Shown here piece by piece: positions 4,550 to 21,942 of a DNA stretch of 21,942 bases. Source of the DNA: a virus; the IMG/VR virus record IMGVR_UViG_3300028666_000111, positions 1 to 21,942 of that record; one strand, written 5' to 3'. Position numbers and translations under genes: made by a program. The notes beneath the pieces were generated by a model, which searched no databases, was not told the origin of the DNA, and was given only the letters and a program-made list of their open reading frames with translations. Each line of letters opens with the position of its first letter. The first letter of the stretch is position 1.

Positions 4550-5223
4550 TATGGAGTCGCGTTGGTGTTCGAAGTGGTGCCACCAGCGGAGTACTGATAG
4601 CCGCCGCCGGGCAGCGGGATCGTATCGACTTTACCCAAAGTAGTGTTGGAGGTGGCTTGTGTGTCCACGCTGTCGAAGTTGATGCAAATCGGGATTGGGG
4701 TCACTAGACAGGTACCGTAGATCAGGGGGACCGGTCCACCCTGGTTGGCGGTGGCGGCATTGCCTTGGAAGTTGTAGGATTGAAGCTGGGCGACCTGTTT
4801 GGGAACTGGGGTCATTAGCTGTTCGATGCCGCCGAAGACCAATCCAGCGCCGAATGCAGCCAAAGAGGCAGTGATGAAGATCGGGGTTCCAGTAAAGACA
4901 GTTAGTGCTATCGCCGCGACGATCAATATGATTCCAGCAATGATCTTCCCCCAACCACTGTTCGCCCCTCTGATCGTGGGCATGATGAAGATGTCGTTCT
5001 GACCACTACGATTGGCCAGCTCGGTCCGGTCTAACAGTGAGTCCTTCTTCCCCACCGCGACCTTGTAGAACTTCTTCTGCCCATCCTTGGCCAGATACCG
5101 TTTGAAAGCCCCACCGGTGTTCACGTCAATCGCATGGACGGCCTCTGCGGGGCTGCTCACGAGCAGCTCCCACTTCTTGCCGAATAACTTGCCGAGTTTG
5201 CCTCCTAGATGAATTGTAGTCAT
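4549..5223 (-). CDS. I: Tail assembly protein I-like (224 aa)
   Basis: Lambda I-family tail-tip assembly protein, acting with J, K and L in building the tail tip. The N-terminal part (1-85) has the family pattern LGGKLGKLFGKKW followed by SSPAEAVHAI. Residues 92-110 and 113-132 are two hydrophobic, glycine-rich segments typical of this family. Residues 149-184 carry the usual C-terminal element with SYNFQGNAATANQGGPVPLIYG. The start at ATG 5223 is supported by AAGGA about 7 bases upstream. The gene follows K after 45 bp and its TAA overlaps the ATG of J by one base (TAATG). The last 40 residues are Gly/Ser/Thr-rich and probably flexible. Family assignment rests on motif recognition and on the exact lambda gene order around it. 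Confidence 0.9.
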   Translation of the reverse strand: MTTIHLGGKLGKLFGKKWELLVSSPAEAVHAIDVNTGGAFKRYLAKDGQKKFYKVAVGKKDSLLDRTELANRSGQNDIFIMPTIRGANSGWGKIIAGIILIVAAIALTVFTGTPIFITASLAAFGAGLVFGGIEQLMTPVPKQVAQLQSYNFQGNAATANQGGPVPLIYGTCLVTPIPICINFDSVDTQATSNTTLGKVDTIPLPGGGYQYSAGGTTSNTNATP

Positions 5224-5268: not shown

Positions 5269-5279
5269 TTACACCGAAT
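5269..5279 (-). promoter_or_regulatory. Copy 1 of the conserved intergenic motif ATYYRGTGTAA
   Basis: Reads ATTCGGTGTAA on the coding strand; its last three bases are the stop codon of K. Followed by CTCC, as in the copy at 14155. A short inverted repeat, GAGGC-ACAAAA-GCCTC, lies just upstream at about 5283-5298, inside the end of K. The ATG of I is 45 bases downstream. The role is unknown; see the other three copies. Confidence 0.5.
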
Positions 5280-5994
5280 TGATGAGGCTTTTGTGCCTCA
5301 GAATACACTTGAGATGGCTCACCCACCGACCGTCGATCAAGTCGATGTGACTCAACGCGTTAAGAGGGTGGTGAAGCATTCGTTGGGGGCTGACAAACAC
5401 CGCCAAATGCTGTGGACACCGCTTCTTCAGGTCGAACAGCAGTCCGTCATGTAGCCTGATCTCGGTCTGCCCGACTTCGAACCGCACGAATCCCTCCTTT
5501 TCGAAGTTGTCCAAAATCGCGCTGGAATCAGTCGTGTCGAAGGTCTTATCGCGGTCGTAATCCCCCAGGTTCAGTCCCAATTCCTGTCGGTACCAGTGAC
5601 GACAGGTCGAATAGCAGTCTTCAAACCCCCAGATGAAGCGGCGACCCTGGTAAGAGACCCGATAACTGTCGGGCAAATGCTCTACCCAAGACTGGCTGGC
5701 CACATCGTACATGTAGAACGGCAAGCAGGCTTCCTCGGCTGTCTCTAGATCACTCTCGCTGAACACAGCGGGGCCATTCGGATGGGAATGGTAGCAAGCG
5801 ATCACATCTCCCTGTTTCAGACAGGATAGATGGTCATCAGCGGCGATCTCGAAGTTCGTGGTTGGGTCCTCTGCGATATTCACACAAGGGAATAGCCCAG
5901 GCCCACTGTCGTTGGCGTAGATCAGACCACAGACCTCTACAGTCGGGGTAGCCTTCGCCAGTTCAATGATCTGTTTCTTCAGTCCCGTGTGCAT
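5269..5994 (-). CDS. K: Tail assembly protein K-like: JAMM/Mov34 plus NlpC/P60 hydrolase (241 aa)
   Basis: Two-domain tail protein. The N-terminal JAB/MPN metalloprotease-like domain keeps the full JAMM motif: E20 in TVEVCGLIY, then H69-S-H71-P, seven residues, S79-x-x-D82. The C-terminal NlpC/P60 cysteine peptidase-like domain has D126-C127 in FEDCYSTCRHWYRQ as nucleophile and H196 in PQHLAVFV as catalytic His, followed by the RMLHH turn seen in lambda K. In the family this domain is thought to cut peptidoglycan or a tail component. I chose ATG 5994, four bases after the L stop, because the frame stays open to 6165 but those 57 extra residues overlap L and look like shadow sequence (basic, unrelated to K). 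No strong Shine-Dalgarno precedes 5994, which suggests coupling to L. All catalytic residues are present, so both domains may be active. Confidence 0.92.
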   Translation of the reverse strand: MHTGLKKQIIELAKATPTVEVCGLIYANDSGPGLFPCVNIAEDPTTNFEIAADDHLSCLKQGDVIACYHSHPNGPAVFSESDLETAEEACLPFYMYDVASQSWVEHLPDSYRVSYQGRRFIWGFEDCYSTCRHWYRQELGLNLGDYDRDKTFDTTDSSAILDNFEKEGFVRFEVGQTEIRLHDGLLFDLKKRCPQHLAVFVSPQRMLHHPLNALSHIDLIDGRWVSHLKCILRHKSLINSV

Positions 5995-5998
5995 CAGA

Positions 5999-6910
5999 CT
6001 ACTTCGACACCACGTACGGAGCCAGAGACACGCCGGGGAAGCCGCCGAAGCGTAGAGGTTGACCGGGGTACCGAATCTTGCAACCCGCAATGGACTTGGG
6101 GCAGGCATCCTGCACCCAGAGGGCCGGATTGTTGATTGGGCTGTTCTGGTTCCCCGTAGTACCATTGGTAGTACAGACGTACAAGACCTGGAGGTTCGAG
6201 ATCGTGGGGAGATTGGACGTGATGATCACATAGTCTCCCTGTGCATAGGTGGAACTGGAGTTGTAGACGCCCCGCGCGTTTAGAGTGTAGCCATAGCCGC
6301 CGGCACCAAAGACCATGTTGTTCTGGTCGGCCAATGGAGCCCCGCTATACCCGCATGTCGGTCCATCGCGGTAGTTGAACCAACACGTGTTGGCGTTGAT
6401 CTGGCGGCGAGGCAGCTTGACCGAGTCCACCTCGAACAGACTGCCCAACTCCCATTCCACCACTTGCTGGTTCTCACTAATCTTCCGGTTCACATACCAG
6501 ATTTCCTGGGGATAAGCCGCTGTCGGATCGGGTGTTCCCCAGGGATTCTTCCCATTGGGCCAGTTGATTGCGTCGATGAACCGAGCAAAGACCCTCTGTC
6601 GGATCACTCGTGCGCCGATCAGATTCCGGTTCTGTAGCAGAAGGTTGGACACGAACCCGTTGATGTTGGACGCCATCAGCGATGGGCGTGGAATCCTGCC
6701 AGTCCCATCGGCCGCCACGTTTCGGACCATGATTGGGAACGGGATGTAGGTGATTCCATTGAAGATGACCGGCTGGTAGGACGTGCTGGTGCCGTCGATG
6801 AAGGAGAAGGTCTCGGGCAGTCCGATGCTAGACCCATCTAGTGTCCACAGAGAGAGCAGGGTGGAAGGCGTGAAGGACAGCGCCTCGATCTGTACGAGTT
6901 GTTCGGGCAT
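5999..6910 (-). CDS. L: Minor tail protein L-like with iron-sulfur cysteines and an inserted module (303 aa)
   Basis: Lambda L-family tail-tip protein, which in lambda coordinates a 4Fe-4S cluster through four cysteines in its C-terminal domain. The N-terminal part (1-165) shows the L pattern, including LVQIEALSF, a conserved FNGITYIPFP stretch and VEWELGSLFEVDSVKLPRR. The four expected cysteines are C176, C186, C270 and C277; the last pair sits in ACPKSIAGCKIRYPG, close to the family consensus, and the protein ends in RFGGFPG plus a short tail. Lambda has 23 residues between Cys 2 and Cys 3, whereas here there are 84. The extra segment (about 212-268) has a YAQGDYVII ... VLYVC ... NNPALWVQ pattern resembling small carbohydrate-binding modules of the CBM5/12 type, and it adds a fifth Cys (C246). 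Starts at ATG 6910, nine bases after the M stop; no strong ribosome binding site. Confidence 0.92.
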   Translation of the reverse strand: MPEQLVQIEALSFTPSTLLSLWTLDGSSIGLPETFSFIDGTSTSYQPVIFNGITYIPFPIMVRNVAADGTGRIPRPSLMASNINGFVSNLLLQNRNLIGARVIRQRVFARFIDAINWPNGKNPWGTPDPTAAYPQEIWYVNRKISENQQVVEWELGSLFEVDSVKLPRRQINANTCWFNYRDGPTCGYSGAPLADQNNMVFGAGGYGYTLNARGVYNSSSTYAQGDYVIITSNLPTISNLQVLYVCTTNGTTGNQNSPINNPALWVQDACPKSIAGCKIRYPGQPLRFGGFPGVSLAPYVVSK

Positions 6911-6919
6911 TTGGTTAGA

Positions 6920-7675
6920 CTAGAAGTCGAAGACGCGCTTCACGGTGAAGGACACGTCGTTGATGTTCCAAGACTTGGTCACCACGCGGGGGCCAGAGGT
7001 CGAGATGAACTTCTGATTCGGCTGGTTGTCCAGCTCTGGAATGGGGATCATGATCGGGAAGCTGTAGACGCCAGCATTGAGTTGGACGAACGCCCGAATA
7101 GCCTTGGCCTCACGATTGCTGCGGTCGGTGAAGACTAGGTTGAACTGGTCTGTGTTGGGGTTGATTGAGGCAGCCTGCCGCTGCTCGTAGCCAGGCTCGA
7201 ATGCAGCTGCGATCACGTTCTGCTGGGTCTCAACAGAGGTCGTATAGCCGGGAACGAACAGGCATCCGGTGGACCAAGCCGGGGAGCAAAGGGTAGTGAT
7301 GATTCCAGCTGAGACGGTCGCTTGATTCTGCCCCCATCCCGCGTTGAGGTAGGTGATCGTCCCGCTGCCGCCAGCCGTGATCATTCCTGTGTAGTTCACC
7401 GTGGGATCGAACGAGCAACCTGAGATTGACACCATCGAGCCGCCTGCGAAGAACGGGCCTCCGGTATAGGTGTAGGTCAGAACGGTGGTATCGTTCCCAC
7501 GCGTGTAGCCGACCACATTGTACCGGTAAACGCCGCTGGGGCTCCATCCCTGGTTGTTGGGCTGGGTGGAGAAGTAGGTGTTGGGGTCGCCCGCCGACAC
7601 GCCGCCAACCACATCGTATTGTTGATAGGTGATGGAGCCGGACCACGGCGGGAAGAATAGTGAGGTATAAGCCAT
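6920..7675 (-). CDS. M: Minor tail protein M-like with long N-terminal extension (251 aa)
   Basis: The C-terminal 115 residues (about 137-251) match the lambda M family: a start like FVPGYTTSVETQQNVI, then GYEQRQAASINPNTD, where the family has a GYxQR...GIN signature, then a beta-rich stretch ending in FTVKRVFDF. In lambda, M joins the tip complex near the tape measure. Lambda M has only about 109 residues; here residues 1-136 are an additional Gly/Ser/Thr/Tyr-rich, beta-looking domain with W11, W44, W114 and W134 and Cys 87, 130 and 138. Its opening (ITYQQYDVV ... YFST) resembles the module inserted in L. The ATG is three bases after the stop of the tape measure gene, so translation is probably coupled. 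The position between tape measure and L supports the call. Confidence 0.88.
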   Translation of the reverse strand: MAYTSLFFPPWSGSITYQQYDVVGGVSAGDPNTYFSTQPNNQGWSPSGVYRYNVVGYTRGNDTTVLTYTYTGGPFFAGGSMVSISGCSFDPTVNYTGMITAGGSGTITYLNAGWGQNQATVSAGIITTLCSPAWSTGCLFVPGYTTSVETQQNVIAAAFEPGYEQRQAASINPNTDQFNLVFTDRSNREAKAIRAFVQLNAGVYSFPIMIPIPELDNQPNQKFISTSGPRVVTKSWNINDVSFTVKRVFDF

Positions 7676-7678
7676 GGA

Positions 7679-10600
7679 TTAGCCTGCGGCTCCTATGCCG
7701 GCGGTGGCACCGAACGGAGTGGTGCGGTTTGCCAGTGGGATGATTCCACCGGGACGCTGCTCATCGATCAGGACCTGTTTGACCGTGGCCTGAACCTGCT
7801 TGTTGAGTCGATCAGCGAAGTCCGCAGAACCGTAGGTGGACTGGGTGGTGGACTGGGAGGTTGGGCCTGTGCCGGGGTAGTTGTGGATTGTGATGGCAAC
7901 GCTTGCTGCCGAGCCGCCGATGGCATTGCTGCCCCCAACTGATCCAACTGGACCACCCACATCGAACGGCTGCGCGATGATCCCGCCATTGGCGCTGAAG
8001 TTCTGCACGTTGGCAGTAGCGCCCGGATCACCCTCGTTGATGATGGAGTAGCCGCCACGACCGTTGGATTGGAGATAGGCGTGGTAGCCGGGAGCCTGAC
8101 TGCTGAGCTGGGACTGCTGCTCGCTTCGAAGCGAAGCCGCATTGTTGAGTACTCCTTGGGGAGATAAAGTGTGATAGGTGGTCTGGAACAGCTTTTCGAC
8201 TAGGAACGCCAGGAATGAGATGGCCGATTGAGCACCGATCTGGCCGAAGTTGGGACCAGCACTGCCGCCCCCACCAGAGCCACCAAACCCCGCCCCAGAA
8301 GTGTCGCTCGTACTGGTCGGAGCGTCGCCGCCATAGAGACCCGGATCACTGTAGCCGGACATATCGGCGGGAGCCCCGTTAGTGTTGATGCTGGAGAAAT
8401 CGATTAGCCCACTGTAACCGCTTGAACCGTCTTGCGCGTAGCCAAAAATCGGGCCGCCACCGGCCCGAGCCTGAACAGCGCGGCTTGTGAGAGCCTGGAG
8501 ATTCTGGGGGCCGAGGCGAGTTACGGCAGACTTCTTGAGGATGAATGCGCCCGGTGCCACGTTGGCGCGGACATCGTCTTTCAGACCAGACCCACCTTGG
8601 ACCAGCCCGCCACCAGCGTAGTTCAAAGCCTTGAGCTTGTCATATCCGATGTTCCGAGCGGCGCTGGGGCTGACGTAGTACTCGCCGCCAGTCAACATGG
8701 CGGGAACCGTGCCGCCTTCAGCGAATAGGCCGGGGATCGCACCGAATAGCTGCTTGATCGCGCTGCTCCCGAACTCAGATGAGATGTTCCCGAAGATGCC
8801 AGCGGCGAACTGGCGGAACGCGTCTCCCTTCTTGGTGTTGATCTGGCCTTGAGCGAAGGCGTTGAAGAACTTGGCGGTCGTGTCTACGACGTTTGCGCCG
8901 ACCTGAGCGCCGATCTCATTGATGTTCGCGGCGGCGTCAGATGCGGTTCCGATGCCCCGATTGAGGCCACTGGCGAACTGATTGAAGTAGGAGGGTGTCT
9001 TGTCAGCAATGTATGCGGGGACACCATCGCTGCTGATGCCAGCCGCGCTGGCTGAACTCGAAGTCGAGGCAGACTTAGAAGATGGGAGGGGAACACCGCT
9101 GATATCGGTTGAGACAGTTGCGATTGGCTTCGTGCCGCCACCAACCCCAGTTTTGAGTGAGGTCGTATTGTCCGCGATCTGCTTTAAGATGTCGTTGCTA
9201 GTCTTGACCCCGGCAATGATGCCGGTTTCACCCGTGGAGATTTGTCCGCTAGCCTGTAGCCCCCTCAGCGTATCCGCGCTCGCCCCATTTTTGCTCAACA
9301 ATTGTGCGGCGGCTGCACGTGGGTCAAACTGGAGAGCCTTGAGTGAATCCAGTGTGCGGTTTCCCAACAGAACATTGTTAGTCGTTCCACTGGCGATGAG
9401 TTCATTAGCCGACCCAGTGAGACTGTTGATGTCAGCACCGACTGGCTTACCGAGCTTTCGGGAGTTCAACGCCGAGAGTGTTCCCAGCACAGACTGCTGT
9501 CTCAGACCATCTTCAACCTCAGCCGTACCCTGACCACGCGGCAGGCCGAGTTGATCTAGAATCCTGCTCTGCTCCAGACTACCATTGACCTGCCCAAGCC
9601 GGCCATACCGACCCACACCCGGACTGGTGCTGGCGGCAATCGCTTCGGAGAACTTGTTGATCGATCCCAGGTTGAACGTGCCGCTTTGGAGAAGCTGGCT
9701 TTTCTGCTGTGCCTGAGCCTCAACCTTTTGAATCTCAAGAAGCTGTTGGGCGAGGATGTTCTGTTGGGTCAGTTTCTGATCTGCCAGACGCCGCATGTTC
9801 TCAGCGTCACTGTGGGCGAGAGAAGTTTGATTGTCCAACGACTTGATCACAGCCTTTTGCTCGTTGGTAGCCTGGGAATTCTGTCGTTCAAACGTCTTGA
9901 GTGCAGTCGATAGCTCCCCCGCCTTGCTCTGATCGATGTCGTTGATCGACTTGGCGATTCCGTAAAAGTCAGGATTGTTGCCTCCTAGCTTACCACGAAT
10001 GCTATCAATGCTTGCTAGGTTCTTATCGGTCTGTCCAGATGTAGCAAATCCCTGAAGGATTGTGGCGAACTTGACCACCGTAGCTGAGGCAGAGCCACCA
10101 AGAGCATTATCGGCCACGGTCTGAGCACCCGCCTTACCAGAAATACTTTGATAGCCCCCTGATCTCTCTCGCTCGTCAGCGGCGGTATAGACTTGATCAC
10201 GTTCCCGCTGAGCCTGTTCTTGCGCGGATTGGAACCTGAAGTTCGACGCAAGGTCTTCTCCATTTTGGAAAATCGCACTGCGATTGGTCAACCCACCTAC
10301 GCGAATTCGACGCTGACCAAGAATGGTCGAAGCCGCTTCGGTCAGATTACGACTAGATTCAGATGAGAATTGATTGAAGCTGCTATTGGACTCTCTAGTG
10401 AATGATCTATCTTGAACAGACTTCTCATTGTTGAATGATCTCTGGAGTTCGGCGTTGCGCGCCAATAGGCTACGAGAGTTGGTCGCGTTTTCTGCCGCGC
10501 TTTGACGTTCGTCAATCAGGTCTTGGATATCCTGTTTTATCTTGTCTGGGTTCAGACCCGACCCAATGTCCTTCAAACCGGCGGCGGCGGTAGACAAATC

Positions 10601-13600
10601 GCGCAGAGACGCGATCTTTCTGAGGAACGTGGCTAGGTCTTCATAGTTTAGCTTGGACAGCGCCTTGATGTTCTCGTCTACCTGCGCGGCAGGAACTCCC
10701 GCTCCTTGAAAGGCTTTTCTCAGTGGCTCTAACGCCTGCACTCCTGGCGAACCCCCTGGGGCAAAACTCCCAAGCCCTGGCGTCTTAGCATAAACACTCA
10801 ACAGGGAGGCTGACGAATTAAGGGCTCCCGTATCTAAACTTTGTCCAGACAGAAGATTGGCAACTGAAGCAGCTGCCGAACTTATAGAGTCGCCAGCCAC
10901 GCTAGCACCGGCAATCCCCTTGAGTGGACCAAATCCAGATACTCCGAGTCTATGCTCTCTGAGCCCAGCAATAGCTTCGGTCGAGATTCCTATCTGAGAA
11001 TCCCTGGCGGCCTTGGCGGTTATCTGATTTTGGACATTGTTCAGTTTATCTGGATCGGAACCAGCCTCAACGTATTGAGCGCGTAGTTTCTCGTCCGAGA
11101 TGGAATTGAAGACATCAAGTCTTTGACCTTCTAGCTTTGCTATGGTCTGCGACGAGGCTCCAGTGGCCTTGGCTTGAGAGATTTTGTCAACGGCAGCACG
11201 ATAGTCATTATTCGTCTCGACAAGCCTTCTGTTCTTGCTATTGAGGTCTTCAACGCTTTTCGTGACATCGTCGAAAGACGCATGGAGTTTGGTAAGCGCA
11301 CCAACCAAAGCGCCAGCTACGGCTCCAATTGCCCCGCCAACTAGCGGACCGCCCAAGAGAGAACCGACGGCCAATCCGCTTCCCGCGAAATTAAGAGCAT
11401 TAGAGGCGGCTCCAACACCAATGCCTTGAGCGGTGCCACCAGGGGCTCCGAAAGCCGAGTCAAGCGCACCGCCGGCAAATGGCAGCGCGAAGGACGCGCC
11501 GAGCTGGAGGCCGACATTGCCGTTAAGGCGGCTGCGGAATCGAGAGAAGAAACCGGGTGTGTTGACTTCCGCTGCAATGGCCGCACTGGATGGTGCTGGA
11601 ATGCCCGACAACTCTGGCGGAATTGGTGCGAAGTTGTAGCCGGGAGTACCAACTCTAGCGTCTTCAGCGGCTTGAAGGCGGGCTCGATACGCCTCGTAGC
11701 GCCCTGACACATTGGAAAACTGACCATTAGGAAGACGCGCTTGGCCGCTCTCTCCATAAACGATTGGTGCGCCAGCTAGACTTGACAGATTGCGCTGGAC
11801 TACCGATTGAACAGGATTCAGCTCTGCCAATCCAGCTCTGATCTCGTTTGCTAATTGATTCTTGGTGACAAACGATGAACCGCCTTCACCTTCGAGCTGC
11901 GCGAATAGACGTTCCTGTTGAGCCTGTTTGGCGGCGGCCTCTTGCGCTCGGGTCTGATCATAGACTTGAGAGACGCCAGGAACTCTGCCGCCCAGTCCAG
12001 ATAGCTGTGCTTGTGCAAGATTGAAGTCTTCAGCGCGTTTCTGGTTGGCTAATGCGGTAGCCGCCACAGACGCCTCAAACGCCGACAGGGGTGGTCCGGC
12101 CTTCTGTGCAGAATTCGCCAGTTTCTCAAACACCTCGTTGATAGCATCCACGTTGAGATAAGCAGCACGAGCACTGGCCGCATCGTAAGATGAGGTTAGC
12201 GGAGTATGTGTCCGAATCGGATCAGTTCTGCTCAGTGCAAGGTCTAATGCAGAAGGCGGATCACCGGGAATATAGCCACCAGGAGCTATCGGGATAGACC
12301 CCGGCGGCAACCCATAGTGACTAATCATGTTCCGATTGAAGATCGCAGACCCGCCGTTAGCGAAGTTCGGTACAATGTACTCCGAGTCGTTTGCGACGAC
12401 CGATCCGACCCTGCCGTTCCCAAACGGGAAGCTGTTCAGGACCACTGGTCGCGCAGAAGAAGGTGCTCCACCCACACCAGATGCAATCGCCGCCGCCTCA
12501 CTACCAAGCGGGAGATAACCCCCGGCGAATCCACCTCTCTCTGCAATGATCTTGGTCACCCCGGCGATCTCAGCCGTGGCCGCACCTCTTGCCGCTGCCC
12601 CCGCAGCCAGATACGACTGGACCAAAGCAGCTTTGTCGGCTAGATTGGTCATTGCGGCCAACTGCTCTCTCAGTTCGATTCCGCCTAGCTTGTATAGGTT
12701 GACAATCTGAGCCTGTGTGGCCTCCTGCTGCTTTGCCGCCGTATTCAACCCAGTCTGACTCAAGATGTCGTTCTTGAGAGCGTTGAACGTTCGTATCGTG
12801 ATTGCGCCAAGAGCCCTAATGAGGATCGGCCCCAGCCCGAACACTACAGCATTGCCGAACCCCTCGATGAATCCCTTGGCAGCCTGTTCGCCACCGGTCT
12901 TCGCGTCAGCATTGGCGTGTTCCAGCGCAGCGGTGATGGGGTTGTTGGTCAGACCTGAGAGCGGCCCGCGAACCAGCGGCGACAAGACCTGATTGCCGAT
13001 GTTGGACCCAATCTGTTTGAATGCGGACTGGAAGTTCTGGATCAGTGAGGTCAGCTCGCGGTTCTGAACCTGCATTCTGACAGTAGCGTTATCGGTGCTA
13101 TTGGCAACCGCATTCTGAACCTGCACAAACGTGCCGTTCTGCTGGTTGAGAGTCGCGAACAGCCCCTTGAGAATGTCGAGTTGACGAGCCCCGCCCACGA
13201 TCTTGTCAATCCCGGCCTTGGCCGAATCCCCAGCCTGGTTATAGGTGGCGGCGAGATTCTGAATGATCTGGAGAGTCGGCAGGGCGTGACCAGCCACATC
13301 AGTCACCGCGACCCCGAACGCCTTGAGTTGATCCAGCGCCTTCTGGGGTTCAAGCCTCGTGAAGATCGTGTTCAGAGCCACGCCGATTGCGGCCCCATCA
13401 CGTTGAGTGGCCTGTTTGGCCGATGCAATCAATGCGATGAATTGATCTAGATTGACCCCGGCGTTCTGAGCGGTAGCCCCAAACCTCTCCATGGCTTCCG
13501 TGATATCCTTCGAGTTCACATTGAACTGCGAGGTCGCGGCCGATATCTTGTTCAGAATGTCATGGGTGTTGGACCCGCTTCTGGCGAAGATGTTCGTGGC

Positions 13601-14128
13601 AGCCGTCAACTGATCAACGGCCTCCTTCGCATCGATGTTGGCGATACGAGACAGGGTCAAAGCGTCCCTGGTACGTTTCAGACTCTCTTCCACCGACAGA
13701 CCTTGACGAACGAATGCTTGAGCGGCGGCGGTAGCGTTTGCGAACGAGGCGCTGGTGGATCGCGCCGCGTCGAACAGTCGATTTGAGTAGTCCGCAATCC
13801 CCGCTGAACTCAGTTTCAGTGTACTGTTGATGTCTCCAATGGCCTTATCCACCTCAAGAGTGGAGCTGACGATGTCCTTGAAGACCTTGATCGCACCGTA
13901 CAAGACACTGACTGAAGAGGTGAAGGAGATGACGCGCTGATTAGCTCGATCTAGATAGGAGGTGAACTGGGACACATCCTTAGAGAGGTCACCGAAGCCG
14001 CCGGCCGTCTCGATCTTCATCTTTAGGGTCGAAGATGGACCACGCTGCCATGCGCTGACCTTCCGATCTAGACTGCTGAAGTCTGGTTCGAATTCTACGC
14101 CTAGCTTGACTTGATTGATGTCTGCCAT
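7679..14128 (-). CDS. H: Tape measure protein (2149 aa)
   Basis: Sets tail length, threads through the tail tube and probably enters the cell envelope at DNA injection. Residues about 90-300 match the TP901-type tape measure core, helical with VDKAIGDINSTLKLS, SASFANATAAAQAFVRQG, TAATNIFARSG and AIGVALNTIFTRLEPQKALD. Residues about 872-946 form a Gly/Ala/Leu-rich stretch whose last part (916-945) could span a membrane. Residues 1150-1480 are largely coiled-coil, rich in Gln, Ser and Asn. Three copies of the G/S-E-Y-x-V-type cassette found in many large tape measures can be seen: SEYIVPNFANGG near 580, GGEYYVSPSAARNIGYDKL near 1810 and PGAFILKKSAVTRLGPQNL near 1855. The C-terminal 250 residues are Gly/Ser-rich. 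No peptidase or lysozyme domain is evident. Follows the 323-residue gene after 48 bp and precedes M by 3 bp. Confidence 0.96.
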   Translation of the reverse strand: MADINQVKLGVEFEPDFSSLDRKVSAWQRGPSSTLKMKIETAGGFGDLSKDVSQFTSYLDRANQRVISFTSSVSVLYGAIKVFKDIVSSTLEVDKAIGDINSTLKLSSAGIADYSNRLFDAARSTSASFANATAAAQAFVRQGLSVEESLKRTRDALTLSRIANIDAKEAVDQLTAATNIFARSGSNTHDILNKISAATSQFNVNSKDITEAMERFGATAQNAGVNLDQFIALIASAKQATQRDGAAIGVALNTIFTRLEPQKALDQLKAFGVAVTDVAGHALPTLQIIQNLAATYNQAGDSAKAGIDKIVGGARQLDILKGLFATLNQQNGTFVQVQNAVANSTDNATVRMQVQNRELTSLIQNFQSAFKQIGSNIGNQVLSPLVRGPLSGLTNNPITAALEHANADAKTGGEQAAKGFIEGFGNAVVFGLGPILIRALGAITIRTFNALKNDILSQTGLNTAAKQQEATQAQIVNLYKLGGIELREQLAAMTNLADKAALVQSYLAAGAAARGAATAEIAGVTKIIAERGGFAGGYLPLGSEAAAIASGVGGAPSSARPVVLNSFPFGNGRVGSVVANDSEYIVPNFANGGSAIFNRNMISHYGLPPGSIPIAPGGYIPGDPPSALDLALSRTDPIRTHTPLTSSYDAASARAAYLNVDAINEVFEKLANSAQKAGPPLSAFEASVAATALANQKRAEDFNLAQAQLSGLGGRVPGVSQVYDQTRAQEAAAKQAQQERLFAQLEGEGGSSFVTKNQLANEIRAGLAELNPVQSVVQRNLSSLAGAPIVYGESGQARLPNGQFSNVSGRYEAYRARLQAAEDARVGTPGYNFAPIPPELSGIPAPSSAAIAAEVNTPGFFSRFRSRLNGNVGLQLGASFALPFAGGALDSAFGAPGGTAQGIGVGAASNALNFAGSGLAVGSLLGGPLVGGAIGAVAGALVGALTKLHASFDDVTKSVEDLNSKNRRLVETNNDYRAAVDKISQAKATGASSQTIAKLEGQRLDVFNSISDEKLRAQYVEAGSDPDKLNNVQNQITAKAARDSQIGISTEAIAGLREHRLGVSGFGPLKGIAGASVAGDSISSAAASVANLLSGQSLDTGALNSSASLLSVYAKTPGLGSFAPGGSPGVQALEPLRKAFQGAGVPAAQVDENIKALSKLNYEDLATFLRKIASLRDLSTAAAGLKDIGSGLNPDKIKQDIQDLIDERQSAAENATNSRSLLARNAELQRSFNNEKSVQDRSFTRESNSSFNQFSSESSRNLTEAASTILGQRRIRVGGLTNRSAIFQNGEDLASNFRFQSAQEQAQRERDQVYTAADERERSGGYQSISGKAGAQTVADNALGGSASATVVKFATILQGFATSGQTDKNLASIDSIRGKLGGNNPDFYGIAKSINDIDQSKAGELSTALKTFERQNSQATNEQKAVIKSLDNQTSLAHSDAENMRRLADQKLTQQNILAQQLLEIQKVEAQAQQKSQLLQSGTFNLGSINKFSEAIAASTSPGVGRYGRLGQVNGSLEQSRILDQLGLPRGQGTAEVEDGLRQQSVLGTLSALNSRKLGKPVGADINSLTGSANELIASGTTNNVLLGNRTLDSLKALQFDPRAAAAQLLSKNGASADTLRGLQASGQISTGETGIIAGVKTSNDILKQIADNTTSLKTGVGGGTKPIATVSTDISGVPLPSSKSASTSSSASAAGISSDGVPAYIADKTPSYFNQFASGLNRGIGTASDAAANINEIGAQVGANVVDTTAKFFNAFAQGQINTKKGDAFRQFAAGIFGNISSEFGSSAIKQLFGAIPGLFAEGGTVPAMLTGGEYYVSPSAARNIGYDKLKALNYAGGGLVQGGSGLKDDVRANVAPGAFILKKSAVTRLGPQNLQALTSRAVQARAGGGPIFGYAQDGSSGYSGLIDFSSINTNGAPADMSGYSDPGLYGGDAPTSTSDTSGAGFGGSGGGGSAGPNFGQIGAQSAISFLAFLVEKLFQTTYHTLSPQGVLNNAASLRSEQQSQLSSQAPGYHAYLQSNGRGGYSIINEGDPGATANVQNFSANGGIIAQPFDVGGPVGSVGGSNAIGGSAASVAITIHNYPGTGPTSQSTTQSTYGSADFADRLNKQVQATVKQVLIDEQRPGGIIPLANRTTPFGATAGIGAAG

Positions 14129-14154
14129 TCCGTGAGCCCAATGCTCTAGAGGAG

Positions 14155-14165
14155 TTACACTGGAT
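14155..14165 (-). promoter_or_regulatory. Copy 2 of the conserved intergenic motif ATYYRGTGTAA
   Basis: Reads ATCCAGTGTAA and continues CTCC, giving ten bases identical to copy 1 (GTGTAACTCC). It lies in the 48-bp gap before the tape measure gene, 26 bases from its ATG. A small hairpin, CCACG-AAA-CGTGG, lies about 15 bases upstream, over the last codons of the preceding gene. Confidence 0.5.
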
Positions 14166-14176
14166 TCATCCCCGTT

Positions 14177-15148
14177 TTACCCACGTTTCGTGGCCCAGTC
14201 GATGACGTTGCCGCCACCTTTGACCATATCCTTGATAACGCTGGTCTGATTCCTAACCCCCAGCACCTGAGCATCTTCCTTCTTCATTCCAACCACCATT
14301 GCCCCCTCGTCATACCCACCCTGCTTCTCCAGTTCGGCCTTGCTCTGCTTGGCGGCACTCGAATAGTCTAACAGAAGGTCGGGATCATCCATGACGTTCT
14401 TGGGGAACTTCGACACGTCAGTCGTCTGATAGACGTTGCGGAACATGATCCCGTACGACAGGAGACGGACCTGATAGAAGGTGAGGTGGCAGATTGGCTT
14501 GCCGAAGAACTGACTCATGTTCTCCCCGGTCAAGCCGAAGTAGCTTTGGAAGAACGGCTGCATCGCAAGTCTCTTGAGATTCAGGTCGGAACAGCCTTCG
14601 ATGGCCGTGTTGTAGTCTTGGATGACCTGCTGGACCGCTTCGTTGGACAGGTACTCGAATTCTTCGTCTGTCCAGAGATTGACCTTCAAGTCCCTGTCTA
14701 GGAACAGGTTAGAGCAGATGTAGAAATCGCTCACTTCGTGGTCGGCATAGGACTCACAGGTGAGCCCAAGCAGCTGCTCCTTCTTCACCAAGAGGTCGGT
14801 CATTTTCTTCTCCTCGTCCTTCTGCTGTTTCAATAGTCCTTTGACCATGGACGGCATGGCCGAGTGCTTCTTCTTGCCCTCGATCAGACCATTGATCATC
14901 CGCCGAGTCGTCTCGATCTCCTTTTCCCTCTCGTCGGACCACAGCTTCTCTTGACGGAGTTGGACCATCCTCTCCTCGTTGGTAGCTATCCCTTGGCGTT
15001 TAGCCTCCTCGAAGTAGCCGTCACGAATCGAATCCTGATTGATCTGATCGGCATAGGACAAGTGCTTGATCCACGCTCGGTTACCCAGGATTACAGCGTG
15101 AGTCGCGCCGACCGTAATGTCGGCAAAGGCTTTCCTGAGGATGTCCAA
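14177..15148 (-). CDS. Putative tail assembly chaperone-position protein, second of pair (323 aa)
   Basis: A soluble, mostly helical protein with no domain I can name with certainty. Residues 50-130 look like a charged coiled coil (KLWSDEREKEIETTRRMING, then QQKDEEKKMTDLL). Residues 130-250 are a compact region with several Cys and aromatic residues (SDFYICSNLFLDRDLKVNLW; QPFFQSYFGLTGENMSQFFG), and the end is basic. It lies directly upstream of the tape measure, where lambda-like phages place the second (frameshifted) chaperone, T. I chose a TTG start at 15148: GGAGGT lies four bases upstream, and the next in-frame Met is residue 61. The frame is also open back to 15211, overlapping the end of the previous gene in the -1 frame, as in lambda G/GT, but I see no canonical slippery heptamer. 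The gene is clearly coding; the function is positional inference. Confidence 0.85.
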   Translation of the reverse strand: MDILRKAFADITVGATHAVILGNRAWIKHLSYADQINQDSIRDGYFEEAKRQGIATNEERMVQLRQEKLWSDEREKEIETTRRMINGLIEGKKKHSAMPSMVKGLLKQQKDEEKKMTDLLVKKEQLLGLTCESYADHEVSDFYICSNLFLDRDLKVNLWTDEEFEYLSNEAVQQVIQDYNTAIEGCSDLNLKRLAMQPFFQSYFGLTGENMSQFFGKPICHLTFYQVRLLSYGIMFRNVYQTTDVSKFPKNVMDDPDLLLDYSSAAKQSKAELEKQGGYDEGAMVVGMKKEDAQVLGVRNQTSVIKDMVKGGGNVIDWATKRG

Positions 15149-15152
15149 AGGA

Positions 15153-15158
15153 CCTCCG
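15153..15158 (-). promoter_or_regulatory. Ribosome binding site deciding the TTG start at 15148
   Basis: GGAGGT just after the previous stop, four bases before TTG 15148. It is the best Shine-Dalgarno in the window and supports TTG as the true start, since the next in-frame Met is 60 codons on. Confidence 0.65.
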
Positions 15159-15159
15159 A

Positions 15160-16011
15160 CTAGACTGAGGCGGCGACGGTAACCGTGGACGCTGGATCGC
15201 CAGTTTGTCCACTATCGGCCTCAACGGGAGCGGCTGGCGCGGGGGCTGCTTTCGCGGCGTCCTTCGCCTTCTGCCGAGCCTCCATCTCCTTCTTCAGCTC
15301 ATCATCAATCAGCCTAAACTGTTCGGGGCGATTCGCGCCCATGTTGAAGAAGTGGACGTAGGTCAGCAGCTTTTGGATGGCGGCGAGATAGAACTCGTCC
15401 TCACTCTCCTCCAGCTTCCAAGAGAACTCTTCCTTCTTCTCGAAAGTGTCTCCCTCGAAATAGGTCTGCCACTTGTCTCCGTGTTGGATGTAGACCAGAT
15501 TGAAGGCGAACCACTGTCCGAGTTGACTCTGGGCCTTGACTTCGGCCGTCTGTGAGAACACAGCCTCGTTGGCCGTATTCAGGTTGTTGATCTCGGCACG
15601 GACCCCGGCCAGCTCGATCTTGATCTTCTCGCGAGCCGCCTCGGGCTCATTGACGGATCGAACGAGATCGGATTCCAATTCGGCGTGGCGGGCGGCCAAC
15701 GTGGCGATCTGTTTACGCTCCTTCTCACTCAACACACCGTTGGTGAGGTCGAGGTGCTGGTTGACCAGGATAGACCGCTGGAGGAATCCATCCTTGATGA
15801 AGCGGTTGTACTCCTTGCCATAGAACAACTCGGCCTGCCGCAGCTCGCGGCGGGTGGGCTGTTTGAGACCCATCTTGGTGACGACGGGCTTCTTGACCTT
15901 TTGCGTTACCTTGGCCGGCTGGCCGTCGATGATCTTGTCTACTGTCTCGTCGTATTCCTTGACTACCTCCACGTCCCAGACGTGAAGGAATTTCGGTTGA
16001 ATGTCTGCCAT
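15160..16011 (-). CDS. Putative tail assembly chaperone-position protein, first of pair (283 aa)
   Basis: Unnamed structural or assembly protein. The region QPTRRELRQAELFYGKEYNR (51-70) followed by FIKDGFLQRSILVNQHL resembles a motif I recall from proteins of large tailed phages annotated as tail assembly chaperones. Residues 95-160 form a charged coiled coil. Residues 163-225 are aromatic and acidic (FAFNLVYIQHGDKWQTYFEG). From about 240 to the end the chain is a Lys/Ala helix followed by an Ala/Pro/Val tail that looks disordered. The ATG at 16011 is strongly supported by two tandem AAGGAC elements just upstream, which suggests high expression. It precedes the 323-residue gene by 11 bp and corresponds in position to lambda G. 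Function is inferred from position and a weak motif resemblance, not from a certain domain match. Confidence 0.85.
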   Translation of the reverse strand: MADIQPKFLHVWDVEVVKEYDETVDKIIDGQPAKVTQKVKKPVVTKMGLKQPTRRELRQAELFYGKEYNRFIKDGFLQRSILVNQHLDLTNGVLSEKERKQIATLAARHAELESDLVRSVNEPEAAREKIKIELAGVRAEINNLNTANEAVFSQTAEVKAQSQLGQWFAFNLVYIQHGDKWQTYFEGDTFEKKEEFSWKLEESEDEFYLAAIQKLLTYVHFFNMGANRPEQFRLIDDELKKEMEARQKAKDAAKAAPAPAAPVEADSGQTGDPASTVTVAASV

Positions 16012-16016
16012 GGTGT

Positions 16017-16028
16017 GTCCTTGTCCTT
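16017..16028 (-). promoter_or_regulatory. Double Shine-Dalgarno for the 283-residue gene
   Basis: AAGGAC occurs twice in tandem; the nearer copy is about six bases before ATG 16011. It fixes the start and suggests strong translation, unlike most genes here, which lack a clear site and are probably coupled. Confidence 0.65.
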
Positions 16029-16051
16029 GAGTTGGTTGCCGTGCCTTGAAA

Positions 16052-16067
16052 GTGTCTCTGTGTCTCT
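16052..16067 (-). repeat. Tandem 8-bp repeat AGAGACAC x2
   Basis: Two perfect adjacent copies at the end of the 112-residue gene and the start of the 54-bp gap before the 283-residue gene. This is the only gap above 40 bp that lacks the ATYYRGTGTAA motif. No function can be read from it. Confidence 0.6.
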
Positions 16068-16404
16068 AGCTCGTGTGGCGTTCGAGCAGGTCTATGAGGT
16101 CCGATACGTCTCTAATCATGTCATTTCCAGCCCTAAGCACGTTAGCCCGCATCACCGCGACCTTTTCCTCGGTAACGTAGTCCGCTAGGCTCACGTAGCT
16201 TTTATACTGCTCGGGAAGGGCTTCGTGCAGCTTAGACATTGCCTCATCGTGCTCGTCGAGGAGTGCTTCGAACTCATCCAGATAGACTCTCATCAATCGA
16301 TTGGTCCCCATCTGGAACTTCGCCTTGAGAAGATCGCGGTTTGACGGAAGCGTGAGTGTGCTGCCGTGCGGTTGCTGACATTGATTGTCTGATCCCTGTC
16401 CCAT
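16066..16404 (-). CDS. Hypothetical phage protein (112 aa)
   Basis: I do not recognise this gene. After a polar N-terminus of about 22 residues, rich in Gln, Ser and Thr, the rest is predicted helical and charged, with two amphipathic stretches (LMRVYLDEFEALLDEHDEAM at 37-56 and the C-terminal MIRDVSDLIDLLE). It has no membrane segment or signal peptide, and a single Cys (C9). It lies between the portal gene and the chaperone-position genes. A head-tail connector, scaffold or small adaptor is possible, but nothing in the sequence shows it. The ATG at 16404 lacks a clear Shine-Dalgarno; an internal Met at residue 32 is an alternative start. It follows an unusually long (109 bp), repeat-containing leader, so it may be separately controlled. 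Confidence 0.75.
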   Translation of the reverse strand: MGQGSDNQCQQPHGSTLTLPSNRDLLKAKFQMGTNRLMRVYLDEFEALLDEHDEAMSKLHEALPEQYKSYVSLADYVTEEKVAVMRANVLRAGNDMIRDVSDLIDLLERHTS

Positions 16405-16421
16405 TTGATGAATGCCTTGGT

Positions 16422-16463
16422 TGACCTGTTCCTTCTGACTCCTGACCTCGCTGACTCTGACCT
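16422..16463 (-). repeat. Cluster of TGACCT / CTGACT short repeats in leader
   Basis: On the plus strand TGACCT occurs at 16422 (one base uncertain), 16443 and 16458, and CTGACT at 16435 and 16451, forming an imperfect tandem repeat of about 16 bp. It lies in the untranslated leader of the 112-residue gene (AGGTCA and AGTCAG on the coding strand). Function unknown. Confidence 0.55.
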
Positions 16464-16475
16464 GTCCGCTACCTG

Positions 16476-16486
16476 TTACACTAGAT
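16476..16486 (-). promoter_or_regulatory. Copy 3 of the conserved intergenic motif ATYYRGTGTAA
   Basis: Reads ATCTAGTGTAA and continues CAGG. It lies in the 109-bp gap between the portal and the 112-residue gene, 71 bases before the latter's ATG. An inverted repeat, CTATTC-TC-GAATAG, at 16514-16527 covers the portal stop codon upstream of it. The element AGACAGGT or GGACAGGT follows both this copy and copy 1. Confidence 0.5.
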
Positions 16487-16513
16487 TTGTGCCGAGTTTC
16501 GCCTGATTATTCG

Positions 16514-18622
16514 CTATTCGAGAATAGGCTTGGTCCGGCTGAGACGAAGTAACGTGGCGTCCCACAGATCAACGTCGTAGTCCTCGCTGATTGAGTCGAT
16601 TTCTGCCTCGGTCTCAGCCGAGATCGCAGTGGGCTTCTCCATGGCCTTTGCGACAGACTTAGTCCACTTCTCACGAGGTTGAGTCGCCATGATGGAGCGG
16701 GCCAGAGCGGTCGCGACAGACTGCTGATTCTGATTCAACTCCTTGATCTTGAAGCGTTTCTTCAACTTCGAACCGATCTCTTCCATGAGACTTTCGCTAG
16801 CCTTGAGGTTCTCGACGTAAGCCCGGCCCGAAAAGGCTGTGCCGCGTTTCGTGCCGACCGGTGATATCTTCTTGGTAGACTGAGGGGTCTTCGTGCCCGG
16901 CGGCCGACCATTGAAGCCTCCACTTGGGCCAGCCCCGCCACCGCCCGGCGCTTGGCCGTCCTGTAGGCTTGCGCCCGTCAAAGGTAGATACAGGCCCTTC
17001 TCGCGATCCTTCTGGTATTGGAGCTGTCCAGCCTTCATCTCATCGGCGTCAGGCAGAACCTTAGTCTGAATGGCGTTAATGGTTTGTTCAGCTGTCAAGA
17101 TGCCGAACTGTGCAAGAGTCGTGTAGACACGAGCCCGGATCATGTCGTCGTCCAGATCGATCTTGCGGAACCCAATCTCGGGTACCGTGCGGAATCCCAT
17201 GTCGTCACAAATCTGAACGATCTCGGGCATGAGGAATTCCTTGAGAAAGACGTTCTGTCCCTCTTCTAGCCGTTGAATGAAGATTTTAGCTCGGACCTGA
17301 GCGTTGGCGAACTTCTCACCGTCTTCGCCGCCGCCGCCCCAGATTGACTGAAGACCCTCTTGAATGTCCTGATTGACGATCTGGTACTTCTCTGGACCAA
17401 GGATGTTCTCTAGCGGTGGGATTAGCCACTGTGCTTTGGTCGTGAAATCGGCCACAAGGACGCGGCCGACAGTCTGATTTGTGAAAAGGTTTTGGAGCCG
17501 GGCGATGTTGTTCGGATTGATGCCATTTCCACCGTTGTATTGGCTGGCGGTTTCGCCAGTCGTCACCAGCAAGATGGCGTGCTCAATCGTCTTGGCGATA
17601 GACTTGTCCATTTGCTTTAGGGCAAGCTTATACTCAAGATCGGGTAGGATCGGATAGCCCATCGGCACCGCCAGTGGCTCGTACGACTGCTTCTTGTAGA
17701 ACATGAACCGAAGCCGCTGCGGGTCCATCGGCAGGTATATCCCGAGTGGATACGCTGAGGTCACGTTGATCTGATCCTTGACAAACTGCGGCATGTCGTC
17801 ATAAACCTGCTGATCCTGCTCTGTCTGGGGCGTTCTCAGCCTCTCGATGTCATAGGTAGACAAGAGGCGCACGTAGGTGTAGGGAAACGACAGCCCGGTC
17901 GGCACGAAGACGTTGGCTGGATTCAGCAGGTAGTAGCGGATCGGAATTCGGTTGTTCTTTGATCCAAAAGACTGCTGGAAGTTCTTGTAGTAGGCAGGGC
18001 CGAACTTGCCGCTGAACTTGTAGAAGAAGACGTTGCCAGAGCGGTAGTATTCCCTCAGCCCATCCTGCTTCAGCTTATCGATGTCGATGATTTTGAACCA
18101 CTCTTGGAAGAACGTCTTCATCGAGGTGTTGTCCGTTTTGATGTAGAGTTCCTGATTGGAGAACTCGACGGCGACTTCGACTGCGTTGCGGAAGATCGGA
18201 ACACCGACGTAGGCGCGGGCGCAGAGTTCGATGGCATTCTTCATGCCTTGATACTGACGGCCGCCACCACCGCCCGCAGTAGCTAGGTTGTCCCCGAACG
18301 ATGCCCACGGAAGAGGAATCTGACTCAGGTTAGGGTAGCCCCATTCCCCCTCTCGTCCATAGCCGCCGCCCCCGCCGCCACCGCCTCGGTAGTTCGATGT
18401 GGAGGCTGGGACGGATTGACCAAAAGCGGTGCGTCGGACCTCAGTCGCGCCGTACTCAATGTCGGCAAAGGGAGTGGGGCGAATCGCCGGAGCTGCCGCC
18501 TGTTGATGGGTGACTGTTATAGCTGGGGCTACCAGAGCGGCTGCGTTAAGCGCGGGGGTGGCGGGCGTGGACTTGCGTCTATCCCAGTATTCGAGGTTCT
18601 TCTTCTGGTAGTGGCGGGCCAT
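16514..18622 (-). CDS. Portal protein (702 aa)
   Basis: Forms the dodecameric ring at one head vertex through which DNA enters and leaves. Recognised by a portal-like core at about 130-545: EYYRSGNVFFYKFSG (191-205), RYYLLNPANVFVP (229-241), a long helical stretch with NQDIQEGLQSIWGGGGEDGE (near 417-436) and the following QVRAKIFIQRLEEGQ stem-type helix, and a final part that turns to LAQFGILTAEQTINAI. Residues 1-130 are low-complexity, with a run of eight glycines at 80-87 and a second Gly-rich patch at 117-121. Residues about 550-575 are another Gly/Pro linker, leading to a separate C-terminal region (577-702), basic and helical and ending acidic, which may be an extension or fused domain of unknown role. 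Lies directly downstream of terL, the usual place. No Shine-Dalgarno sequence is obvious before ATG 18622. Confidence 0.9.
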   Translation of the reverse strand: MARHYQKKNLEYWDRRKSTPATPALNAAALVAPAITVTHQQAAAPAIRPTPFADIEYGATEVRRTAFGQSVPASTSNYRGGGGGGGGYGREGEWGYPNLSQIPLPWASFGDNLATAGGGGGRQYQGMKNAIELCARAYVGVPIFRNAVEVAVEFSNQELYIKTDNTSMKTFFQEWFKIIDIDKLKQDGLREYYRSGNVFFYKFSGKFGPAYYKNFQQSFGSKNNRIPIRYYLLNPANVFVPTGLSFPYTYVRLLSTYDIERLRTPQTEQDQQVYDDMPQFVKDQINVTSAYPLGIYLPMDPQRLRFMFYKKQSYEPLAVPMGYPILPDLEYKLALKQMDKSIAKTIEHAILLVTTGETASQYNGGNGINPNNIARLQNLFTNQTVGRVLVADFTTKAQWLIPPLENILGPEKYQIVNQDIQEGLQSIWGGGGEDGEKFANAQVRAKIFIQRLEEGQNVFLKEFLMPEIVQICDDMGFRTVPEIGFRKIDLDDDMIRARVYTTLAQFGILTAEQTINAIQTKVLPDADEMKAGQLQYQKDREKGLYLPLTGASLQDGQAPGGGGAGPSGGFNGRPPGTKTPQSTKKISPVGTKRGTAFSGRAYVENLKASESLMEEIGSKLKKRFKIKELNQNQQSVATALARSIMATQPREKWTKSVAKAMEKPTAISAETEAEIDSISEDYDVDLWDATLLRLSRTKPILE

Positions 18623-18634
18623 GACTGATCGTTT

Positions 18635-18645
18635 TTACACCAAAT
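18635..18645 (-). promoter_or_regulatory. Copy 4 of the conserved intergenic motif ATYYRGTGTAA
   Basis: Reads ATTTGGTGTAA and continues AAAC. It lies in the 57-bp gap between terL and the portal gene, only 12 bases before the portal ATG, where a Shine-Dalgarno would be expected and none is seen. One of the two AAAGCAGAT repeats overlaps its 5' side. Confidence 0.5.
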
Positions 18646-21867: not shown

Positions 21868-21942
21868 CTAGTCTTTCAAATAGAGTCTGCCCGACTCGTA
21901 GCTAAACTGGAGATCGGTTTTCTTGACGCTTGAACCAGCCGC
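21868..21942 (-). CDS. Possible C-terminal end of an upstream gene, partial
   Basis: The minus-strand frame starting at the window edge is open for 24 codons and stops with TAG at 21870-21868, two bases before the terL ATG. The residues look like a plausible protein end (KKTDLQFSYESGRLYLKD), and the tight spacing suits this operon. A second frame, ending at TAG 21904-21902 with FKRQENRSPV, is also possible. Too short to assign a function; by position the small terminase subunit is one candidate, with no sequence support. Confidence 0.4.
   Translation of the reverse strand, partial: AAGSSVKKTDLQFSYESGRLYLKD

What the first reader, a model, noticed from the sequence alone, without database searches (positions are those of the whole stretch)
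5269..18645. An 11-bp motif, ATYYRGTGTAA, in four of five larger intergenic gaps, all in the same orientation
Copies at 18635-18645, 16476-16486, 14155-14165 and 5269-5279 all lie on the coding strand ahead of portal, the 112-residue gene, tape measure and I. Two share ten bases, GTGTAACTCC. By simple base counts fewer than 0.1 copies are expected in the whole window, though I built the pattern from the copies. Three are preceded by a small inverted repeat at the end of the upstream gene. Candidates: phage late promoter element, RNA processing or antitermination site, or translational operator.
Basis: partly seen in the sequence, partly recalled or inferred. Interest (0 to 1): 0.62.

Follow-up and report, generated by a model that had tools for sequence, protein, structure and literature searches.

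The report
Late-gene promoter element of uncultured phages
A short DNA signal, GTGTAA, that sits just ahead of virion genes in this virus of bacteria recurs at the same places across dozens of related phages never grown in culture, each carrying its own RNA-polymerase sigma factor, so it is most likely the switch that turns on their late genes.

Summary
ATYYRGTGTAA occurs exactly four times, at the stated places, all on the coding strand (shuffles: 0.03). Its core GTGTAA occurs nowhere else on either strand. One copy overlaps the stop codon of the K-like gene.

It is conserved. The nearest relative (L016; portal 62% identical) has it in seven gaps, including terminase/portal and K/I. That relative encodes a sigma-70-family factor upstream of its terminase; the window ends just short of that position.

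Relatives of this sigma gave 52 dereplicated loci, window included. In their gene gaps GTGTAA is the most enriched of all 6-mers (94 seen, 10.1 expected). In co-directional gaps RGTGTAW is 80 sense to 3 antisense. It is present in 35 of 36 gaps behind the terminase. The same method finds TATAAATA in T4 and not GTGTAA in four control phages.

There is no -35 element. The element often ends 8-10 nt before the start codon, the register of the -10 boxes of TTGAC/TATAAT promoters in the same phages. TTGAC promoters precede many replication genes; the element precedes mostly virion or unknown genes.

Best reading: a -10-only late promoter read by a phage sigma, working like T4's gp55/TATAAATA with another sequence. 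Sigma dependence is inferred.

The parts
18635..18645 (-). Element copy 1 (ATTTGGTGTAA) in the terminase/portal gap; 12 nt to the portal ATG
   Evidence: same gap has the element in L016 and in 35 of 36 sigma-phage loci
16476..16486 (-). Element copy 2 (ATCTAGTGTAA) between portal and the 112-aa gene; 71 nt to its ATG
14155..14165 (-). Element copy 3 (ATCCAGTGTAA) ahead of the tape measure gene; 26 nt to its ATG
   Evidence: the tape measure gene of the 203-kb relative G003 is also directly behind an element
5269..5279 (-). Element copy 4 (ATTCGGTGTAA) overlapping the K stop codon (GTG TAA); 45 nt to the I ATG
   Evidence: same position and same stop-codon overlap in L016
16012..16065 (-). The one larger gap without the element (112-aa gene / 283-aa gene)
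18680..21865 (-). Large terminase with an in-frame LAGLIDADG intein; no element ahead of it
   Evidence: phrog_2; Pfam intein/LAGLIDADG in the L016 homologue
16514..18622 (-). Portal protein (702 aa)
   Evidence: 62% identical to the L016 protein next to its terminase; no PHROG match, so the name rests on position and on distant relatives
16066..16404 (-). 112-aa protein of unknown function behind copy 2
7679..14128 (-). Long ORF (2149 aa) behind copy 3, taken as tape measure protein from size and position
   Evidence: not searched against family libraries
5269..6165 (-). K-like tail protein ORF; its stop codon lies inside copy 4
   Evidence: phrog_30
4549..5223 (-). I-like tail assembly protein behind copy 4
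   Evidence: phrog_32
21868..21942 (-). 3' end of the gene upstream of the terminase (AAGSSVKKTDLQFSYESGRLYLKD*); resembles by eye the C-terminus of the ERCC4-type nuclease at this place in L016. The sigma gene would lie about 2 kb further, beyond the contig end
   Evidence: L016 gene order and Pfam

Best explanation
The motif is the core of a phage late promoter, a -10-type element RGTGTA(A/T) in an A/T-rich context with no -35 box. It is most likely recognised by host core RNA polymerase programmed with a phage-encoded sigma-70-family factor. That factor is encoded in a conserved block (Zn-ribbon ORF, sigma, 383-aa gene, ERCC4 nuclease, terminase) just upstream of the virion genes. Copies ahead of portal, the 112-aa gene, tape measure and I would start separate, nested late transcripts. 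In relatives transcription probably begins at or within a few nucleotides of many start codons (leaderless or near-leaderless mRNAs); in this window the leaders would be longer. Shown: sequence, position, conservation, spacing and association with the sigma. Inferred: promoter activity, sigma recognition, timing, and presence of the sigma in this phage (off the contig).
For: (1) Same element in the nearest relative, in seven gaps including the orthologous terminase/portal and K/I gaps. (2) That relative encodes a sigma factor (Sigma70_r2 E=2.6e-5, above the Pfam cut-off; PHROG 1740 sigma). All 16 aligned homologues match Sigma70_r2, and the best PDB fold matches are sigma factors. (3) In 52 dereplicated loci, nearly all found through this sigma (window included), GTGTAA ranks first of all 6-mers in gaps: 94 seen, 10.1 expected, log10 p -56, 42 loci. 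Without the window and L016 it is still first, 85 to 9.7. (4) 80 sense to 3 antisense in co-directional gaps, 3.79 per kb versus 0.11 in genes. (5) Present in 35 of 36 gaps behind the terminase; shuffles give 1.5, antisense 0. (6) Spacing: 42 of 109 copies end 8-10 nt before the start codon, 8.6 expected if placed uniformly (p 6e-19). In G003 the -10 of TTGACW-TANNNT promoters ends 6 nt before the start (13 sites), so the element occupies the -10 register. (7) No -35 information. (8) Gene classes: TTGAC promoters precede ribonucleotide reductase, DnaB, DNA polymerase, clamp loader, nucleases, rIIA/B; the element precedes minor tail, tape measure, tail fibre, and portal by position. (9) Method control: T4 gives TATAAATA; T4, SPbeta, phiCDIF1296T and P-SSM2 do not give GTGTAA. 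(10) No multisubunit RNA polymerase found in ten records, while all ten have Sigma70_r2.
Against: No transcript 5' ends exist. The sigma gene is not on this contig. The window's own spacings (12, 26, 45, 71 nt) do not show the sharp 8-10 nt mode. A ribonucleotide reductase gene in G004 sits behind an element, and most element-led genes have no PHROG function, so 'late' is a tendency. Some sigma operons have an element rather than a TTGAC promoter as the nearest one upstream. Single-subunit RNA polymerase could not be excluded with a working control. Loci were gathered through the sigma, so sigma-motif coupling is shown only against a few control phages.
Confidence: 0.84

Rival explanations
1. 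Translational element: the sequence acts in the mRNA near the start codon, as an unusual ribosome-binding or operator site.
For: The 8-10 nt spacing from the element to the start codon resembles Shine-Dalgarno spacing, and Shine-Dalgarno-like sequences are rare at these genes.
Against: Distances range from 1 to over 100 nt. The -10 boxes of TTGAC promoters in the same genome have nearly the same register to start codons, which a promoter explains and a ribosome site does not. The element lies in gene gaps and is about 34-fold rarer inside genes, whose ends also precede start codons.
Confidence: 0.05
2. RNA processing or antitermination site in a long polycistronic late transcript.
For: Copies lie between genes of one operon, on one strand, some after small hairpins; T4 RegB and similar nucleases cut short motifs (general knowledge).
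Against: The hairpins are not above baseline. Fixed spacing to the start codon and the -10 register are unexplained. Copies also occur in divergent gaps, each pointing to its own gene.
Confidence: 0.05
3. Late promoter, but read by something other than the neighbouring sigma: a phage-encoded single-subunit polymerase, another phage sigma, or a host sigma with an activator.
For: Some relatives carry three or four Sigma70_r2 proteins (G008, G009). The single-subunit polymerase search had no working control. The terminase/portal gaps carry RACTTT repeats that could bind an activator.
Against: The block sigma is the factor shared by the loci, and seven of ten larger records show just one Sigma70_r2 match. 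No multisubunit polymerase found. A very distant clade with a divergent homologue of the same sigma has the similar element TNTGTGTAT.
Confidence: 0.06
4. Coincidence: a pattern built after the fact from chance matches.
For: The pattern was built from the copies.
Against: Blind 6-mer ranking on independent relatives gives the same core first, and the orthologous gap has it in 35 of 36 loci.
Confidence: 0.002

Closest known systems
T4 late promoters (TATAAATA) with gp55, gp33 and gp45
   Same: Short element at the -10 place, no conserved -35, just ahead of virion genes, many copies per genome, phage-encoded sigma-70-family factor. T4 late promoters show no conservation at the -35 site (PMC2988020), and the same script recovers TATAAATA.
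   Different: Element is RGTGTA(A/T); the sigma has a conserved Cys insert (CxxC...C...QCxECP) after region 2; homologues of gp33 and clamp dependence were not looked for; many relatives look near-leaderless.
ECF sigma factors (SigE, SigW, RpoE) and their promoters
   Same: Best PDB sequence and fold matches of the phage sigma include ECF region 2; an ECF region 2 has been solved with the DNA GTAAAA (entry 5or5).
   Different: From general knowledge ECF promoters have a conserved -35; none here. The phage protein has the Cys insert and only a weak region-4 signal (E 0.059).
phiKZ/AR9-type phage promoters read by phage multisubunit RNA polymerases
   Same: Phage-specific short promoter elements for temporal classes.
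   Different: No Rpb2-type subunit found in ten records.
Host sigma-70 promoters (TTGACA-17-TATAAT)
   Same: Nearly the same register to start codons in G003.
   Different: Different sequence, no -35, mostly a different gene class.

Membership tests
T4-type late promoter | TATAAATA consensus at -10 | tested here: not met
   Top gap element is GTGTAA/GTGTAT in these phages; TATAAATA is found in the T4 control
T4-type late promoter | No -35 element | tested here: met
   Information at most about 0.1 bit upstream of the immediate A/T-rich flank, 109 sites
T4-type late promoter | Phage-encoded sigma-70-family factor | tested here: met
   In L016 and relatives; the window is cut before the place
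T4-type late promoter | Located ahead of late (virion) genes and not replication genes | tested here: met
   with one exception (RNR in G004) and many genes of unknown function
T4-type late promoter | Coactivator gp33 and sliding clamp dependence | not tested
   The 383-aa gene next to the sigma is a candidate only by position
ECF-type promoter | Conserved -35 plus -10 | tested here: not met
Sigma-70 family (phage sigma protein) | Region 2 | tested here: met
   16 of 16 homologues match PF04542; fold matches
Sigma-70 family (phage sigma protein) | Region 4 | tested here: inconclusive
   Sigma70_r4_2 E=0.059, below cut-off
Functional promoter | Primary transcript 5' ends at the element | not testable with these tools
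   No RNA data

The most novel reading that the evidence does not exclude
A late-transcription system of a large group of phages without cultured members: one Cys-rich, ECF-like phage sigma reads a -10-only element RGTGTA(A/T) conserved across sigma proteins only about 30-50% identical, and starts leaderless or near-leaderless late mRNAs. A very distant marine clade keeps the same pairing with the variant TNTGTGTAT.
Probability: 0.6. Interest if true: 0.7.

Novelty: new variant of a known kind. Interest (0 to 1): 0.62.

Why it matters
Late promoters are known for few phage groups, nearly all cultured. Here a promoter code and its probable reader come from sequence alone, for phages on contigs up to 205 kb with no match in 50,697 phage records at the sensitivity used. 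If right, GTGTAW plus the sigma lets early and late genes be told apart in hundreds of uncultured phage contigs, points out virion genes of unknown function, and offers a simple sigma/-10 pair to test in vitro.

Tried and rejected
Similarity to known phages: none for portal, sigma or the whole window; only the terminase has distant SPbeta/C. difficile phage hits. The 323-aa gene gave no relatives. Portal alignment against bacterial genomes gave none; the sigma gave one Flavobacteriaceae MAG contig, too little to name a host. Hairpins upstream of the copies: at baseline. Shine-Dalgarno contrast between short- and long-spaced sites: trend only, p=0.11. Single-subunit polymerase search: its control did not ring, so it says nothing. 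Promoter of the sigma operon: mixed, 8 loci TTGAC, 22 nearest element-type (counting gaps several genes away, and loci with both), 21 unresolved. Avoidance of GTGTAA inside window genes: 1 seen, about 5.5 expected from synonymous shuffles, P=0.007; suggestive only. Literature: no paper with GTGTAA as a phage promoter in the held library, which lacks most subscription journals.

Full report
OBSERVATION. The pattern ATYYRGTGTAA matches the window exactly four times, at the claimed coordinates, all on the minus (coding) strand; shuffles give 0.03 on average, and allowing one mismatch adds none. The core GTGTAA occurs nowhere else on either strand. The five larger gaps total 313 nt and four hold a copy; the chance of all four GTGTAA falling in them is about 3.7e-9, about 1.5e-5 after multiplying by the number of 6-mers. 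One correction: at 5269-5279 the last three bases are the stop codon of the K-like gene.

WHAT THE WINDOW IS. The record is a 21.9-kb virus fragment. Its genes are an intein-bearing terminase, portal, a 112-aa gene, two unknown genes, a long tape-measure-like ORF, and lambda-like M, L, K, I and J-like tail genes. No phage in the annotated collection matches it at the DNA level.

CONSERVATION IN THE NEAREST RELATIVE. A terminase search found L016 (IMGVR_UViG_3300042090_001375; terminase 68%, portal 62% identical). It has GTGTAA in six head-side gaps on the coding strand, including the terminase/portal gap. On its oppositely oriented tail module it has one more between K and I, again overlapping the K stop codon (GSV* versus NSV*). 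Upstream of the L016 terminase lie a Zn-ribbon ORF, a sigma factor (Sigma70_r2 E=2.6e-5; PHROG 1740), a 383-aa gene and an ERCC4-type nuclease. The same block occurs in L017 and L019-L020. The first 75 nt of the window's coding strand look by eye like the end of that nuclease gene, so the sigma would lie just off the contig.

THE SIGMA AND ITS PHAGES. The sigma alignment found 324 relatives in IMG/VR, 80 of which were kept, some on contigs up to 205 kb. No isolate phage or plasmid matched by tblastn. All 16 aligned homologues match Sigma70_r2. They share a Cys insert, CxxC...C...QCxECP. The best structural matches are sigma factors, at modest significance: E 0.013, and TM 0.66 to a SigE N-terminal domain.

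BLIND MOTIF TEST. With a simple gene caller and no motif supplied, GTGTAA is the most enriched of all 6-mers in the gaps of 52 dereplicated loci (94 versus 10.1; 42 loci). The overlapping AGTGTA and the variant GTGTAT come next, followed by the sigma-70 hexamer CTTGAC. Dropping the window and L016 leaves 85 versus 9.7, still first. The same test on the T4 late region with 8-mers returns TATAAATA; SPbeta and phiCDIF1296T return Shine-Dalgarno sequences; P-SSM2 returns nothing strong; none returns GTGTAA. In co-directional gaps RGTGTAW is 80 sense and 3 antisense, 3.79 per kb against 0.11 in genes. In gaps of 10-150 nt behind the terminase GTGTAW is present in 35 of 36 loci, expectation 1.5.

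ANATOMY. There is no -35 element: positions from -50 to -5 carry at most about 0.1 bit. In 42 of 109 copies the element ends 8-10 nt before the start codon; uniform placement predicts 8.6. In the 203-kb relative G003, a second class of sites, TTGACW-TANNNT, has its -10 ending 6 nt before the start codon in 13 cases, and RGTGTAA ends 8 nt before it in 8 of 20. The two promoter classes share nearly one register, so the element is best read as a -10 box with transcription starting at or near the start codon. The window's own copies lie 12-71 nt from start codons and would mostly give ordinary leaders.

GENE CLASSES. In G003 the TTGAC class precedes ribonucleotide reductase (both subunits), DnaB, a dNMP kinase, a clamp loader, an endonuclease, rIIA and rIIB. 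The GTGTAA class precedes minor tail L, tape measure, tail fibre, an ATP-dependent protease, PhoH and many unknown genes. In G002 and G004 TTGAC precedes DNA polymerase, exonuclease, clamp loader and endonuclease, while the element precedes mostly unknown genes, the portal by position, PhoH, and one ribonucleotide reductase, an exception.

MECHANISM. Most likely host core polymerase with the phage sigma initiates late transcription at these elements. Steps shown: sequence, place, spacing, conservation, gene classes, association with the sigma. Steps inferred: promoter activity, recognition by this sigma, timing, and presence of the sigma in the window's own phage. No multisubunit polymerase was found in ten relatives.

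COMPARISON. It works like T4 late promoters: short -10 element, no -35 (PMC2988020), own sigma. It is not one of them by sequence, and the T4 coactivator and clamp parts were not tested. A distant marine clade (L005-L013) with a divergent homologue of the sigma (E about 1e-6) has TNTGTGTAT at the same kind of place, which suggests an old sigma-promoter pairing. I found no paper describing it in the held library; that search is incomplete.

Noticed in passing
L042, L067, L076, L079, L083, L086, L093-L096, L109: gap behind the terminase: Repeated RACTTT/AAAGTTAACTTT units upstream of the element: 48 copies in 2.3 kb of terminase/portal gaps versus 2.2 in shuffles, and rare in other gaps. Activator site, terminator or packaging signal are open.
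   Followed up: partly
L005-L013 (marine, contigs up to 125 kb): Very strong gap motif TNTGTGTAT (GTGTAT 58 seen, 1.9 expected, loci not dereplicated) with a divergent homologue of the same sigma at about 4513-5109; no isolate relatives.
   Followed up: partly
L019-L021: These phages carry the sigma block but show TTTRGTAATAAAT in two gaps, found nowhere else in the loci; a different element for a diverged sigma is possible.
   Followed up: partly
G003 about 155,891 (L121 about 5490): Palindrome TTACACTAGTGTAA carrying two divergent copies of the element in one 39-nt gap, each facing its own gene.
   Followed up: no
L016 5655-6335 and homologues: Sigma with a conserved Cys-rich insert between region 2 and the C-terminal helices, a possible zinc site.
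   Followed up: partly
L016 6404-7555 and homologues: 383-aa conserved gene next to the sigma with repeated helix-turn-helix-like segments and no Pfam or PHROG hit; coactivator or small terminase are guesses.
   Followed up: no
window 18680-21865: Terminase carries an in-frame intein with a LAGLIDADG-like domain; also in L016.
   Followed up: partly
window 14177-18622: No recognisable major capsid gene between portal and tail genes, unlike L016, where head genes follow portal and tail genes lie on the opposite strand.
   Followed up: no
G008, G009: Four and three Sigma70_r2 matches in one phage record.
   Followed up: no
window, all genes: GTGTAA is under-represented inside genes (1 versus about 5.5 in synonymous shuffles, P=0.007), as if the element were avoided.
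   Followed up: partly
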